A stretch of DNA of 35,588 nt from Methylocystis sp. (GTDB lineage Bacteria > Pseudomonadota > Alphaproteobacteria > Rhizobiales > Beijerinckiaceae): the NCBI RefSeq assembly GCF_021731785.1, contig NZ_JAKFWS010000086.1, positions 1 through 35,588 of the forward strand. Reading direction: 5' to 3'. Made by a program: the position numbers and the translations under genes. Each line of letters opens with the position of its first letter. Position 1 is the stretch's first letter. The notes under the pieces were generated by a model, which saw only the letters and a program-made list of their open reading frames with translations, ran no database searches and was not told the DNA's origin. Below, piece after piece: positions 8,756 through 35,588 of this stretch.

Positions 8756-10111
8756 TCATTCGAGGAACTCGCCAAAATAGCGAGTCGTGAAGCGCGATCT
8801 CGCCAGCCGTTTCGGTATTGCGATGTCGCCTTTTTCGAGCCACTGCGTCTGGATTGGCGAAACCCGCGCGCCGAGCGCATCAATCGCCAGCCTGTTGTAA
8901 CGCCGCGAAAAATCCTGCCATTGCGGCGCGCAGGGATCGCTGCAGAATGGATCGAACGAAAAGGAGACGCCGGGCCCGTCCGAATAGAGTCCGAAGGGCT
9001 TTTGGGCGCGAGGCGGTCGATTGACGAAATACGTCGCCCAGCCGCCTGGCGCGAACCCCGTCTCCGCCGCAAAGGCCTTGGTGAAATCATAACTCTCGGC
9101 GATCACCCGCTCGAGCTTGGAAATGTCGTGCTCATAGTATTGAAAGTCGAGCCGTTTCTCGTCCTTGCAAGGACGCCAATATTCGTTCACGAAATCGGCC
9201 CGTGAATAGAGGATTCCTTTCGGCTGCGGAGTCGCGACGCCGTCGAACCCGCGCTGGATCGCCAGCCGTTTCGCGATGCGGAATTCTTCGCATTCAGATT
9301 GGGGGAACGGCGCGAGGCTCCCGGAGCCAGCCGCGTAGCGTTGGTCATAAAAGCTGACAAGCTTGTCGAGAAAAACGATGGCGAGCAGCGCATCGCATTG
9401 TCCTCGCCTTTCGAGGAGGCTGCGCGCGAGTTGCTGCGGCGTCTCGTAAGTCTCGAGCGAAACATCGCTGCGGCAGAGCCGCGCCGGCCGCGTTTCAACG
9501 CAGCATTCGACGACTATGCCCATGAGGCCGAAGCTGCATTTGAACTCATAAAAATCCGCGCCGTCGGCGTGGTCGGAAATCGTTCGCAGCTCGCCCATGT
9601 CGTCGACATAGGTCAATTCGACGACATGGGCGGAGAAAAAGCCCGGCCCGTCAAGCGATGATTCTTTCGTGTCCCCCACCGCGACGGAGCCGACAGTCGC
9701 TTCGCCGATCTCAGCCTGAAAGGGAATCTCACGCTCGCGCTCTTTCAGCCACATGTTGAGCTTCTTCAAGCGGCAGCCTGCCTGCACGCGTATGACGTCA
9801 CGCCCGAGCGCATCGGTCTCGATCCCCAGAATTGAATCGAGCTTGCGCAGGCAGACAAGCGTTCCGCCGTCGTTCACGATTGCGTCGGTGACGGACAGCA
9901 TCGAACCGACGGGATTGACCGGCGTCGGAAAGCGTCGATGATTGCGCGCGATCGACTGTACGTCGGCATAGCTGATCGGCTCGACGTAGACGGCTGGCGT
10001 CGTGGCGCGATGTCCGCCCCAATTTGAATAGCGCCTTCCTTCGGCGATCAGTCCGTGAACGGGCGGCGCGTCGCTGTCTGGGCAAGAGTCCGGCGTGCAA
10101 GCAGGCGCCAT
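8756..10111 (-). CDS. FAD-binding oxidoreductase (PCMH / sugar-lactone oxidase-like)
   Basis: This 451-residue protein has an N-terminal PCMH-type FAD domain: YSNWGGHRATTP, PVGSMLSVTDAIVNDGGTLV and the GEATVGSVAVGDTKESS stretch, where family members contact the flavin. The C-terminal domain ends in RFTTRYFGEFLE, reminiscent of D-arabinono/L-gulono-lactone oxidases. It probably oxidises a sugar, lactone or alcohol with FAD; the substrate is unknown. No export signal is apparent. ATG 10111 follows GGAGA with seven-base spacing, so the longer frame to 10174 is not needed. It lies between the NTF2-like gene and the sigma factor on the same strand, suggesting a shared regulon. Confidence 0.8.
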   Translation of the reverse strand: MAPACTPDSCPDSDAPPVHGLIAEGRRYSNWGGHRATTPAVYVEPISYADVQSIARNHRRFPTPVNPVGSMLSVTDAIVNDGGTLVCLRKLDSILGIETDALGRDVIRVQAGCRLKKLNMWLKEREREIPFQAEIGEATVGSVAVGDTKESSLDGPGFFSAHVVELTYVDDMGELRTISDHADGADFYEFKCSFGLMGIVVECCVETRPARLCRSDVSLETYETPQQLARSLLERRGQCDALLAIVFLDKLVSFYDQRYAAGSGSLAPFPQSECEEFRIAKRLAIQRGFDGVATPQPKGILYSRADFVNEYWRPCKDEKRLDFQYYEHDISKLERVIAESYDFTKAFAAETGFAPGGWATYFVNRPPRAQKPFGLYSDGPGVSFSFDPFCSDPCAPQWQDFSRRYNRLAIDALGARVSPIQTQWLEKGDIAIPKRLARSRFTTRYFGEFLE

Positions 10112-33669: not shown

Positions 33670-33710
33670 AAATCGTAACGAAAGTTTCGCGGCGGAAAGG
33701 AGTGCCCAAA

Positions 33711-34319
33711 ATGAATTTCAGATATGTGACGGTGCCAGCGCTTTTAGCCGTCTGTCTTGCCGGCTGCAACGGAGGGACTGCCCTTCCAGATCCGAGGCTG
33801 AGCGGGCGCGACGCCGAATTCATGGCGCTCGCCCCGAAGGCTTCGGTCAGCTCGCAATACGAGCGCTACATGGTTGATTACAAGACGAACGAGCCGGTCG
33901 GCTCGATCATCGTCGATAATCGCTCCAAGTTTCTTTACTATGTCATGCCGGGCGGCAAGGCGGTGCGCTACGGCGTCGCCACCGGCCAGGACGCGATGGC
34001 CTTCACCGGACGGGCCTATGTTGGGGCTATGCAGGAATGGCCGCGCTGGATTCCGCCCAAGGACATGCTCGAGCGCTGGCCGCATCTTCAGCCGACGGCG
34101 GACGCCGGCGGTCTGCCCGGCGGTCCCGACAATCCGCTCGGCTCCCGTGCGCTCTACCTCTATCAGAACGGCAAGGACACGCTGTATCGCATTCACGGCA
34201 CCAATGAGCCGGACAAAATCGGACAGGCCGTGTCCTCGGGCTGCATCCGCATGCGCGATATCGATGCAATCGATCTTTACCACCGCGTGAAGGTCGGCAC
34301 GAAAGTCACCGTGCTCTAA
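33711..34319 (+). CDS. L,D-transpeptidase (YkuD family) lipoprotein
   Basis: This 202-residue protein begins with a lipoprotein signal (lipobox LAGC, lipidated C19) and has a YkuD domain. The catalytic motif is IHGTNEP (H162) with SSGCIRM (C178). It cross-links peptidoglycan through 3-3 bonds or attaches proteins to it in the periplasm. Length is typical of the short anchored members. ATG 33711 is preceded by AAGGAG at eight bases; the frame start at 33702 is unnecessary. A hairpin with a 9-bp stem lies 29 bases after the stop. Confidence 0.95.
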   Translation: MNFRYVTVPALLAVCLAGCNGGTALPDPRLSGRDAEFMALAPKASVSSQYERYMVDYKTNEPVGSIIVDNRSKFLYYVMPGGKAVRYGVATGQDAMAFTGRAYVGAMQEWPRWIPPKDMLERWPHLQPTADAGGLPGGPDNPLGSRALYLYQNGKDTLYRIHGTNEPDKIGQAVSSGCIRMRDIDAIDLYHRVKVGTKVTVL

Positions 34320-34347
34320 GTCCTTTACCGACTTCAAGATTTGAGTT

Positions 34348-34377
34348 GACGCCCTCCGCGCATTGCGAGAGGGCGTC
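34348..34377 (+). terminator. hairpin terminator of the L,D-transpeptidase gene
   Basis: GACGCCCTC (34348-34356) pairs perfectly with GAGGGCGTC (34369-34377), with a partly paired 12-base loop. The tail ATCTATTCT is only moderately T-rich. The rest of the 243-base gap before peptide gene 1 shows no other gene. Confidence 0.65.
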
Positions 34378-34464
34378 ATCTATTCTGATGAGGCAATATC
34401 TTTCGCATCGGCTGCGTTCGCCCCAAAACCCCTGTAGAGCCGCCAAGACGCGAGCTTGAAATTC

Positions 34465-34482
34465 CACATGCGCGAACATGTG
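34465..34482. promoter_or_regulatory. inverted repeat upstream of peptide gene 1
   Basis: CACATG (34465-34470) and CATGTG (34477-34482) form a perfect 6-base inverted repeat with a six-base spacer, about 80 bases before the peptide 1 ATG. It could be an operator for a dimeric regulator. A chance palindrome is possible. Confidence 0.3.
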
Positions 34483-34562
34483 CGCCGTCGCACTGCGTCA
34501 GATCGACGGCGCTCCTAAAGTCGCCATGCTCGCAGAGTGCGGGCGACGGAGGAGGGGAAGTC

Positions 34563-34709
34563 ATGATGCGTCCGACGACAAGCATGGGCTGGTTAGGCCT
34601 GGTGGTTTGCGTTCTTTTGCTGGAATTCGCCAGCGCCGGCGCTTACCTCGCGTCGTCCGCGAAAGCTAATCCCTCGGACGTTTGCTATGGTTATGCGATT
34701 TGCCAATAA
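34563..34709 (+). CDS. small secreted peptide 1 with C-terminal CYGYAICQ
   Basis: This 48-residue frame was found by eye. A hydrophobic N-terminal half (LGLVVCVLLLEFASAGAYLA) ends at AKA, a good Sec cleavage site. That leaves a mature peptide of about 13 residues beginning NPSDV and ending CYGYAICQ. The two cysteines flank five residues, so a small disulfide loop could form in the periplasm. GGAGGGG lies five bases before ATG 34563; an adjacent ATG at 34566 is equally placed. The same C-terminal pattern recurs in the gene at 34867-34998, which argues that both are real. The function is unknown. Confidence 0.7.
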   Translation: MMRPTTSMGWLGLVVCVLLLEFASAGAYLASSAKANPSDVCYGYAICQ

Positions 34710-34735
34710 ATTTTGATGCTTTGCGCAAGTTCCGT

Positions 34736-34760
34736 GGAACGCGCGCGCCCACATTGCGTT
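34736..34760 (+). promoter_or_regulatory. EcfG-type general stress promoter upstream of peptide gene 2
   Basis: GGAAC (34736-34740) and CGTT (34757-34760) are separated by exactly 16 bases. This matches the GGAAC-N16-17-CGTT consensus of the alphaproteobacterial general stress sigma factor. It lies between the two peptide genes, about 105 bases before the ATG of peptide 2. No ecfG, phyR or nepR gene is in this window. Confidence 0.6.
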
Positions 34761-34866
34761 TATTTCTTGAAAGGCCGGCGCGTTCGAGGTCGAAGCTCGA
34801 AAGAGCGGAGACGCGGAGCGCCGCGCCTTTCAAATTTTCAGCGATAGACGGAAGGTGGGGCCCGTC

Positions 34867-34998
34867 ATGCGCAAGTTGGTTGTGTATGTCCTGATGCTAT
34901 TCATGTTCGCGGCAAGCGTCGCGAGCGCAACGACCATGCTCTCGCGTCCGTCGCCCAACGGCGACGATTTTTGCTTTGGATATGCGATTTGCGAGTAA
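34867..34998 (+). CDS. small secreted peptide 2 with C-terminal CFGYAICE
   Basis: This 43-residue frame was found by eye. The Sec signal MRKLVVYVLMLFMFAASVASA ends in ASA. It leaves a mature peptide of about 22 residues that begins TTMLSRPSP and ends DDFCFGYAICE. It shares C-aromatic-G-Y-A-I-C-polar-stop with peptide 1, although the rest of the sequences differ. GGTGGGG lies six bases before ATG 34867. An EcfG-like promoter precedes it. A disulfide between the two cysteines would make a seven-residue ring at the C-terminus. The function is unknown. Confidence 0.72.
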   Translation: MRKLVVYVLMLFMFAASVASATTMLSRPSPNGDDFCFGYAICE

Positions 34999-35283
34999 TC
35001 GCGGCCTGCGCGTCATTGGGCGAGATGCCGGTGACGCGCCAGGTCTCGTAGCCGGGCGATGTTGCGCATCAGTGCGCCGGTGCCGATGAAGGCCCTTCAT
35101 CAGCCAATCATATTTGTCTGAAAGCCTCGCGAACGCGTTGTTTCAGAGGCGCTACCAGCTTAGCCGCGCAGGCGCTAATCGCGCGGCTGAGGGATTATAC
35201 CGATCCCCATTGAAGCAGACTCATTGGGTCTTCACGAATCGGCTTTCGTCTGATTCTAGTTGGCGAACTCCAGGGGGTTCGCC
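34999..35283. other. intergenic region upstream of the transposase, with possible broken transposase scraps
   Basis: This stretch holds no intact gene. On the minus strand, two short frames around 35029-35140 (reading NAFARLSDKYDWLMK and then, one base out of frame, AFIGTGALMRNIARLRDL) look like pieces of one degraded protein, possibly a transposase tail, but I cannot assign a family. An 8-bp hairpin (35162-35169 with 35181-35188) lies nearer the transposase. The left end of the IS630 element should lie somewhere in 35190-35283, but I cannot fix its inverted repeat without the right end. Confidence 0.35.
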
Positions 35284-35284
35284 A
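35261..35284 (+). promoter_or_regulatory. hairpin over the ribosome binding site of the transposase
   Basis: TGGCGAAC (35261-35268) pairs perfectly with GTTCGCCA (35277-35284). The second arm includes the A of the ATG, and the AGGGGG ribosome binding site falls in the loop and at its edge. Such structures keep transposase translation low when the mRNA is read from outside promoters. Confidence 0.55.
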
Positions 35285-35588
35285 TGGCGGCTGCGATTGG
35301 ACTGCGGGAAGACTTTGACGCGGATGCGCTTCGGGCGATTGCGAAGCGCGCGAAAGATGGGCCTCAGGCACGCAGGCTCCTGGCGCTCGCCGCAATTTAC
35401 GACGGCGCGCCGCGCGGCGAGGCGGCGAAGATTGGCGGCGTGACGCTCCAGGTCGTTCGCGACTGGGTTTTGCGCTTCAATGCGCATGGCGAGAGTGGCC
35501 TCGTTGACCGCAAGGCGCCGGGTCAACCGTCGCTCTTGAAGAACGAACATCGCGCCGCGCTCATGCGCATGATCGAGGACGGTCCGAC
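35284..35588 (+). CDS. IS630-family transposase, N-terminal part (runs off the window)
   Basis: An open frame from ATG 35284 continues past the right edge, with 101 residues visible. The sequence RAIAKRAKDGPQARRLLALAA, then IYDGAPRGEAAKIGGVTLQVV and GLVDRKAPGQPSLL is the N-terminal helix-turn-helix region of IS630-type transposases, which bind the element ends. The DDE catalytic domain would lie beyond the window. AGGGGG is six bases upstream, inside a hairpin. The visible part shows no frameshift. Confidence 0.93.
   Translation, partial: MAAAIGLREDFDADALRAIAKRAKDGPQARRLLALAAIYDGAPRGEAAKIGGVTLQVVRDWVLRFNAHGESGLVDRKAPGQPSLLKNEHRAALMRMIEDGP

What the first reader, a model, noticed from the sequence alone, without database searches (positions are those of the whole stretch)
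34563..34998. Two tandem mini-genes encode exported peptides with the same C-terminus, C-(Y/F)-G-Y-A-I-C-(Q/E)
Two small frames, 48 and 43 codons, sit side by side with strong ribosome binding sites and predicted Sec signals ending in AxA. Apart from being small and secreted, they share only the last eight residues. At DNA level the block TATGCGATTTGC is conserved and the flanks differ, which suggests selection on the peptide end. The predicted mature products are about 13 and 22 residues with two cysteines five residues apart, so a seven-residue disulfide ring at the C-terminus is likely in the periplasm. I know no described family with this ending. Roles to consider are a signalling or stress peptide, metal binding, or the precursor of a modified peptide.
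Basis: partly seen in the sequence, partly recalled or inferred. Interest (0 to 1): 0.82.

Follow-up and report, generated by a model that had tools for sequence, protein, structure and literature searches.

The report
Methanotroph mini-proteins sharing one tail
Two tiny neighbouring genes in a methane-eating bacterium belong to a previously unnamed family of export-tagged mini-proteins that end in nearly the same two-cysteine tail, and the two genes carry different predicted on-switches, one of them resembling the general stress switch.

Summary
ORF A (34563-34709, 48 aa) and ORF B (34867-34998, 43 aa) belong to one lineage-restricted family of export-signal mini-proteins ending in D-x-C-x-G-Y-A-[ILV]-C plus 1-6 residues. 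A profile search finds full-length members in 33 of 39 Methylocystis genomes and 10 of 10 genomes of the Methylosinus genus; in the sampled family it rings in 2 of 43 genera. Third codon positions vary inside the motif, so the protein rather than the DNA is kept. Pfam, NCBIfam, PHROGs, PADLOC and PDB gave no convincing relative.

New here: the two genes carry different control elements. GGAAC-N16/17-CGTT, the EcfG general-stress promoter pattern, precedes 26 of 31 distinct B-type genes; the palindrome GTGCG-N4-CGCA precedes 22 of 23 A-type genes. In the home genome that palindrome also precedes other tiny export-signal ORFs.

Best reading: one periplasmic, probably disulfide-looped tail supplied under two regimes, general stress and an unknown palindrome-binding regulator. 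Coding and lineage conservation are well supported; export and stress control are strong predictions; disulfide, partner and function are inferred. Membership in methanobactins, bufferins or entericidins is not supported.

The parts
34480..34493 (.). palindrome GTGCGCCGTCGCAC before ORF A; predicted operator
   Evidence: GTGCG-N4-CGCA before 22 of 23 A-type genes; in 247,547 bases of Methylocystis DNA the strict form occurs 6 times, all before A-type genes; one match in the window, 0.15 expected
34514..34524 (+). conserved CCTAAAGTCGC block, possible -10 region of the A promoter
   Evidence: kept in varied form in the alignment of 21 loci; inference, no promoter scan hit
34550..34555 (+). AGGAGG ribosome site of ORF A
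34563..34709 (+). ORF A, 48 codons, export-signal mini-protein ending CYGYAICQ (alternative start 34566)
   Evidence: profile hit E 2.4e-18
34736..34760 (+). GGAAC-N16-CGTT, EcfG-type (general stress response) promoter of ORF B
   Evidence: before 26 of 31 distinct B-type genes; 13 of the 15 sites in 247,547 bases of Methylocystis DNA are at B genes; but the window alone gives 2 matches, 0.47 expected
34768..34832 (+). stable hairpin in the predicted 5' leader of ORF B
   Evidence: z -4.1 for 34765-34870; element kept in 14 aligned leaders but no covarying pair; not present in every B leader; no Rfam match
34867..34998 (+). ORF B, 43 codons, export-signal mini-protein ending CFGYAICE
   Evidence: profile hit E 5.9e-20
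34347..34378 (+). GC-rich hairpin after the YkuD gene, likely terminator that separates A from it
   Evidence: z -3.7; not called by the terminator scan, which found 3 other sites against 1.7 expected
33702..34319 (+). YkuD L,D-transpeptidase gene, conserved neighbour in Methylocystis
   Evidence: PF03734 E 9.4e-22; neighbouring clusters in compared loci

Best explanation
A and B are paralogous members of a mini-protein family of Methylocystis and Methylosinus. Each has a Sec-type N-terminal helix that sends it to, or anchors it in, the inner membrane, leaving a short periplasmic tail D-x-C-x-G-Y-A-[ILV]-C. In the oxidising periplasm the two cysteines most likely close a seven-residue ring that presents G-Y-A to one conserved envelope partner. 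The two genes supply the same tail under two regimes: B from an EcfG (PhyR-NepR) general-stress promoter, A from a promoter with a palindromic operator shared with other tiny export-signal genes. Shown by computation: conservation, lineage restriction, protein-level constraint, the two upstream elements. Inferred: export, ring, partner, stress function. Component odds: real coding family 0.95, exported or membrane-anchored 0.85, B in the EcfG regulon 0.8, disulfide ring 0.6, one envelope partner 0.45.
For: Intact frames in 33 of 39 genus genomes (34 pass E 0.1; one hit, G022, does not reach the motif) and 10 of 10 Methylosinus-genus genomes. 13 members found only by the profile, 9 of Methylosinus and 4 divergent Methylocystis copies, still carry D-x-C-x-G-Y-A-[ILV]-C. 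Outside the motif pN/pS is 0.43 for A (22 sequences) and 0.55 for B-like (33). Small-x-Ala within 20 residues before the Asp in 51 of 56 distinct members. AlphaFold model: helix 2-25 and loose tail. EcfG-type element before 26 of 31 distinct B-type genes, 13 of 15 sites in 247,547 bases; the published Sphingomonas EcfG motif GGAAC-N17-20-GTT fits (PMC6599016, passages seen). NepR, the anti-sigma factor of that response, in 8 of 8 genomes tried, home genome included.
Against: 5 of 31 B-type genes lack the element: four with a longer C-terminal tail and one whose upstream DNA is replaced. Methylosinus and the unplaced copies lack it too. 5 of 56 members have no clear small-x-Ala. Six of 39 genus genomes have no member, and 4 of 4 of these whose YkuD flank I read have no tailed small ORF there, so the family is dispensable. 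The tail has low model confidence. No transcript, protein or disulfide evidence was seen.
Confidence: 0.5

Rival explanations
1. Uncleaved single-helix membrane mini-proteins that are accessory subunits or regulators of a membrane complex of type II methanotrophs; the tail docks on the complex and the cysteines need not form a ring.
For: Restricted to two of the three pmoA-bearing genera of the sampled family. Helix 2-25 predicted; four tailed members (L071, L076, L077, L078) differ at the C-terminus and three of them have no small-x-Ala.
Against: G001 and G004 have pmoA but no member; G021, G036 and G037 have a member but no pmoA hit (the last three are drafts). The A/B locus is not beside a methane monooxygenase gene in the loci compared. 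Small-x-Ala before the tail in 51 of 56.
Confidence: 0.2
2. Precursors of a modified peptide (RiPP), with the cysteines or tyrosine of the tail modified before or after export, for example for metal binding.
For: Sec signal plus short Cys core is the design of MNIO-modified precursors (PMC12452194, passages seen). One copy (G016, L038) lies 3.3 kb from a bufferin MNIO maturase; three divergent copies (L173-L175) lie about 3 kb from a radical-SAM gene in a shared neighbourhood.
Against: No maturase among the neighbours of the main A/B locus that were scanned. In L038 a glutamate-synthase-type gene lies between. Spacing is C-x5-C, not the C-x4-C or EGKCG named in that paper. Family conserved as free-standing genes.
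Confidence: 0.12
3. A toxin/antidote pair of tiny envelope peptides, like the entericidin locus in layout.
For: Tandem, small, export-signal, one gene under a stress-type promoter. The comparison with entericidins is recalled.
Against: By type read from the profile hits, 9 of 33 genomes have B without A and Methylosinus has one A-like gene, so pairing is not obligatory; no lipobox; no entericidin profile hit.
Confidence: 0.08
4. A released signalling peptide.
For: Short, Cys-bounded, nearly constant tail after a variable signal.
Against: No receptor or exporter gene linked in the loci examined; no density-type regulator seen.
Confidence: 0.07
5. Conserved DNA that is not translated.
For: A conserved hairpin lies in the B leader in part of the genus.
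Against: Third positions vary inside the motif and pN is below pS outside it; frames intact in 33 genomes.
Confidence: 0.02

Closest known systems
Entericidins EcnA/EcnB (Escherichia coli; recalled)
   Same: tandem tiny export-signal genes, one of them stress-sigma controlled
   Different: entericidins are lipoproteins with a lipobox cysteine; here no lipobox, a two-Cys C-terminal tail, no profile match, and B occurs without A
Bufferins and other MNIO-modified precursors (PMC12452194, passages seen)
   Same: Sec signal followed by a Cys-bearing core
   Different: no MNIO/DUF2063 operon at the A/B locus in the ORFs scanned; different Cys spacing and motif
Methanobactin precursor MbnA (PMC3621798, passages seen)
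   Same: tiny Cys peptides of the same genera
   Different: MbnA has a Lys/Arg-rich leader and C-[GAS]-[ST] core beside mbnB/mbnC; A and B have a hydrophobic signal and no such motif
EcfG-regulated genes of the alphaproteobacterial general stress response (PMC6599016, passages seen)
   Same: GGAAC-N16/17-CGTT upstream element; the Sphingomonas list includes a predicted small secreted protein
   Different: regulon membership is a class of control, not a protein family; not tested by experiment

Membership tests
EcfG general-stress regulon (gene B) | EcfG-type promoter upstream | tested here: met
   34736-34760; 26 of 31 distinct B-type genes; background. By pattern only
EcfG general-stress regulon (gene B) | PhyR-NepR-EcfG system in the organism | tested here: met
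   NepR in 8 of 8 genomes searched, home included; PhyR and EcfG themselves not searched
EcfG general-stress regulon (gene B) | EcfG-dependent expression | not testable with these tools
   no expression data
Methanobactin precursor (MbnA) | Lys/Arg-rich leader and C-[GAS]-[ST] core | tested here: not met
   sequences against features in PMC3621798
Methanobactin precursor (MbnA) | mbnB/mbnC beside the gene | tested here: not met
   not among the ORFs scanned at the main locus; other neighbours were not all scanned
Bufferin / MNIO precursor | MNIO and DUF2063 genes in the same cluster | tested here: not met
   none among scanned ORFs at the A/B locus; one unlinked-looking copy 3.3 kb from BufB
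Bufferin / MNIO precursor | Sec signal peptide | tested here: inconclusive
   hydrophobic start and A-x-A; no signal predictor available
Entericidin | lipobox and entericidin profile | tested here: not met
   no Pfam match at E up to 10 other than a weak Blr hit, 0.053, below cut-off; no Cys after a lipobox; lipobox definition recalled
Blr divisome protein | PF24673 / NF033231 score above cut-off | tested here: not met
   13.5 against 27 bits and 15 against 40 bits, signal region only, A alone

The most novel reading that the evidence does not exclude
A released or membrane-displayed cyclic peptide of type II methanotrophs: one C-x-G-Y-A-x-C ring delivered by two differently regulated genes, A as part of a regulon of tiny exported proteins under one palindrome-binding regulator and B under the general stress sigma factor, acting as a stress or status signal in the cell envelope or between cells.
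Probability: 0.1. Interest if true: 0.85.

Novelty: new variant of a known kind. Interest (0 to 1): 0.55.

Why it matters
It adds a small-protein family, with an almost fixed tail, to the well-studied genera Methylocystis and Methylosinus, including the model strain Methylosinus trichosporium OB3b (named through its plasmid). The two control elements turn an orphan into a testable system: one gene is predicted to follow the general stress response, the other an unknown regulator with a set of tiny exported targets. If the ring is real it would be a compact, genetically simple envelope peptide for asking how stressed methane oxidisers act on their membranes.

Tried and rejected
Rejected readings. 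DNA-level repeat or gene-conversion block: third positions vary. Broad motif: 18 of the 42 stretches of the genome-contig scan come from unrelated organisms and, read by eye, none has a signal-like start with the motif near a C-terminus, so I treat them as chance; the other 24 are family members. Strict methane-monooxygenase link: not one-to-one. Defence or phage origin: no PADLOC match; PHROGs only 0.26. Plasmid location: no match of the A-B DNA or of the OB3b peptide in the plasmid collection. PDB: four weak hits at E 0.18-0.2, not taken as relatives. Structure of the tail: not resolved, so no fold search was run. Leader hairpin as an RNA element: no covarying pair.

Caveats on method. Many members were collected with a pattern that fixes most motif residues, so the very low pN/pS inside the motif is partly built in; I rely on third-position variation, on the part outside the motif and on the 13 members found by profile only. 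The B-like set of 33 includes a few unplaced copies. The family-wide profile search scored at most 28 candidates per genome, and the order-wide search used a pattern that would miss the Methylosinus form. The palindrome control used random positions, coding ones included, so its enrichment is overstated. Gammaproteobacterial methanotrophs were covered only by the genome contigs pattern scan. Synteny was compared for a subset of loci, not for every copy.

Full report
Observation. The window holds two small frames in tandem, A 34563-34709 and B 34867-34998. A is MMRPTTSMGWLGLVVCVLLLEFASAGAYLASSAKANPSDVCYGYAICQ and B is MRKLVVYVLMLFMFAASVASATTMLSRPSPNGDDFCFGYAICE. In the 4.2-Mb home genome the motif pattern occurs only at these two places, with no match of the reversed control.

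Organism. The window's genus is Methylocystis: contigs of the same genus group have the length and names of Methylocystis records, for example Methylocystis rosea SV97 and Methylocystis sp. L43. The second genus is Methylosinus: a contig of one member, G179, is identical over 6000 bases to a plasmid of Methylosinus trichosporium OB3b. One member of that genus group, G140, bears the name Methylocystis sp. in its record.

Distribution. The exact motif pattern is in 27 of 39 genus genomes, control 0. A profile built from the first members gives 34 of 39 at E up to 0.1; one of these (G022, E 0.0138) does not reach the motif, so I count 33. By type of hit, I read A plus B in 23 genomes, B alone in 9 and one unplaced copy in G016; six genomes (G001, G004, G015, G017, G022, G034) have none, three of them below 90% complete or at that limit. 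All 10 genomes of the Methylosinus group have a member. In the family sample 25 of 258 genomes and 2 of 43 genera match (at most 28 candidates scored per genome); a motif pattern gave 21 of 298 and the same 2 of 43 genera. In the order sample only the 2 Methylocystis genomes among 397 matched the stricter pattern, which would miss the Methylosinus form. Of 42 stretches in a scan of 84,980 species genomes, 24 are family members and 18 look like chance.

Selection. Members collected by pattern cannot prove motif conservation. Thirteen members found by the profile alone (nine Methylosinus, G012 second copy, G038:C52, G011:C7, G011:C8) all keep D-x-C-x-G-Y-A-[ILV]-C while the residue after the first Cys changes to Leu, Met or Ala. 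Third codon positions vary throughout the motif, pS 0.55 in A and 0.85 in B-like genes; before the motif pN/pS is 0.43 and 0.55. In four of four member-free genomes whose YkuD flank was read, no tailed small frame remains.

Export. The N-termini are hydrophobic with a basic start, and a small-x-Ala site lies within 20 residues before the Asp in 51 of 56 distinct members. No signal-peptide predictor was available. AlphaFold gives a helix 2-25 and a loose tail, mean pLDDT 69, pTM 0.38. Predicted mature tails are about 13 residues for A and 22 for B.

Neighbourhood. In the Methylocystis loci compared, the genes lie between a YkuD L,D-transpeptidase gene and, convergently, a gene for a membrane protein of about 190 residues without Pfam match, followed by dihydrolipoamide dehydrogenase. 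In Methylosinus the gene lies beside xerC and, in part of the loci, the same convergent gene. This is gene order, not an operon: A is cut off from YkuD by a hairpin at 34347-34378.

Control of B. Aligned loci showed a block upstream of B that stays fixed in poorly conserved DNA. It is GGAAC-N16/17-CGTT, present before 26 of 31 distinct B-type genes. The five without are four members with a longer tail and one gene whose upstream DNA is replaced. In 15 Methylocystis sequences, 247,547 bases, the pattern occurs 15 times, 13 of them at B. The window by itself is weaker: two matches, 0.47 expected, one inside the TonB-receptor gene. The published EcfG motif of Sphingomonas melonis is GGAAC-N17-20-GTT (PMC6599016, passages seen). 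NepR is in 8 of 8 genomes tried, including two without a member.

Control of A. GTGCG-N4-CGCA precedes 22 of 23 A-type genes and, exactly, 4 of 9 Methylosinus genes at a similar distance; the strict palindrome occurs 6 times in the 247,547 bases, always before A-type genes. In the home genome TGTGCG-N4-CGCAC gives 18 strand matches at 15 places against 2 for the reversed control. Four of these 15 places, A included, are followed within 40-160 bases by a tiny ORF with a hydrophobic start, against 6 of at most 4000 random positions (coding positions were not excluded from the control). The form resembles a CRP-type half-site in my judgement; the regulator is unknown.

Leader. B's predicted 5' leader holds a stable hairpin, 34768-34832. 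It is kept in 14 aligned leaders without covariation, is not found in other B leaders and matches no Rfam family.

Literature. No paper in the held library contains five spellings of the tail. Searches for small proteins, general stress response and small ORFs in these genera returned listings without such a family. Of PMC12403871, a transcription map of Methylosinus sporium 5, I saw passages only; they name RpoD, RpoN and CtrA motifs, and those passages did not mention an EcfG motif.

Judgement. The family, its coding nature and its lineage restriction are well supported. The EcfG link for B and the palindrome for A are strong predictions from sequence. The ring, the partner and the function are inference. 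The nearest working analogy is a stress-regulated pair of tiny envelope peptides; membership in the named families was tested and not met.

Noticed in passing
home genome, loci L202, L216, L217 (and A itself, window 34480-34493): The palindrome TGTGCG-N4-CGCAC precedes several unrelated tiny ORFs with hydrophobic starts, suggesting a regulon of small exported proteins under an unknown regulator.
   Followed up: partly
window 34999-35588: The convergent gene found next to B in relatives survives here only as a remnant with stops, followed by the start of an ORF with transposase-type HTH domains at the contig end.
   Followed up: partly
L173-L175: Three divergent family copies share a neighbourhood with a cyclase-domain gene, TIGR04282 and TIGR04283 glycosyltransferases and a radical-SAM gene; G011 has two diverged copies of this neighbourhood.
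   Followed up: partly
L038:5017-5931 and 9239-9259: A stray family copy in G016 lies 3.3 kb from a bufferin MNIO maturase with DUF2063 and DoxX genes.
   Followed up: no
L071, L076, L077, L078: A sub-clade ends in six residues after the last Cys instead of one and lacks the EcfG-type element.
   Followed up: partly
home genome: NepR-type anti-sigma genes are multiplied: six matches in the home genome, five over the cut-off.
   Followed up: no
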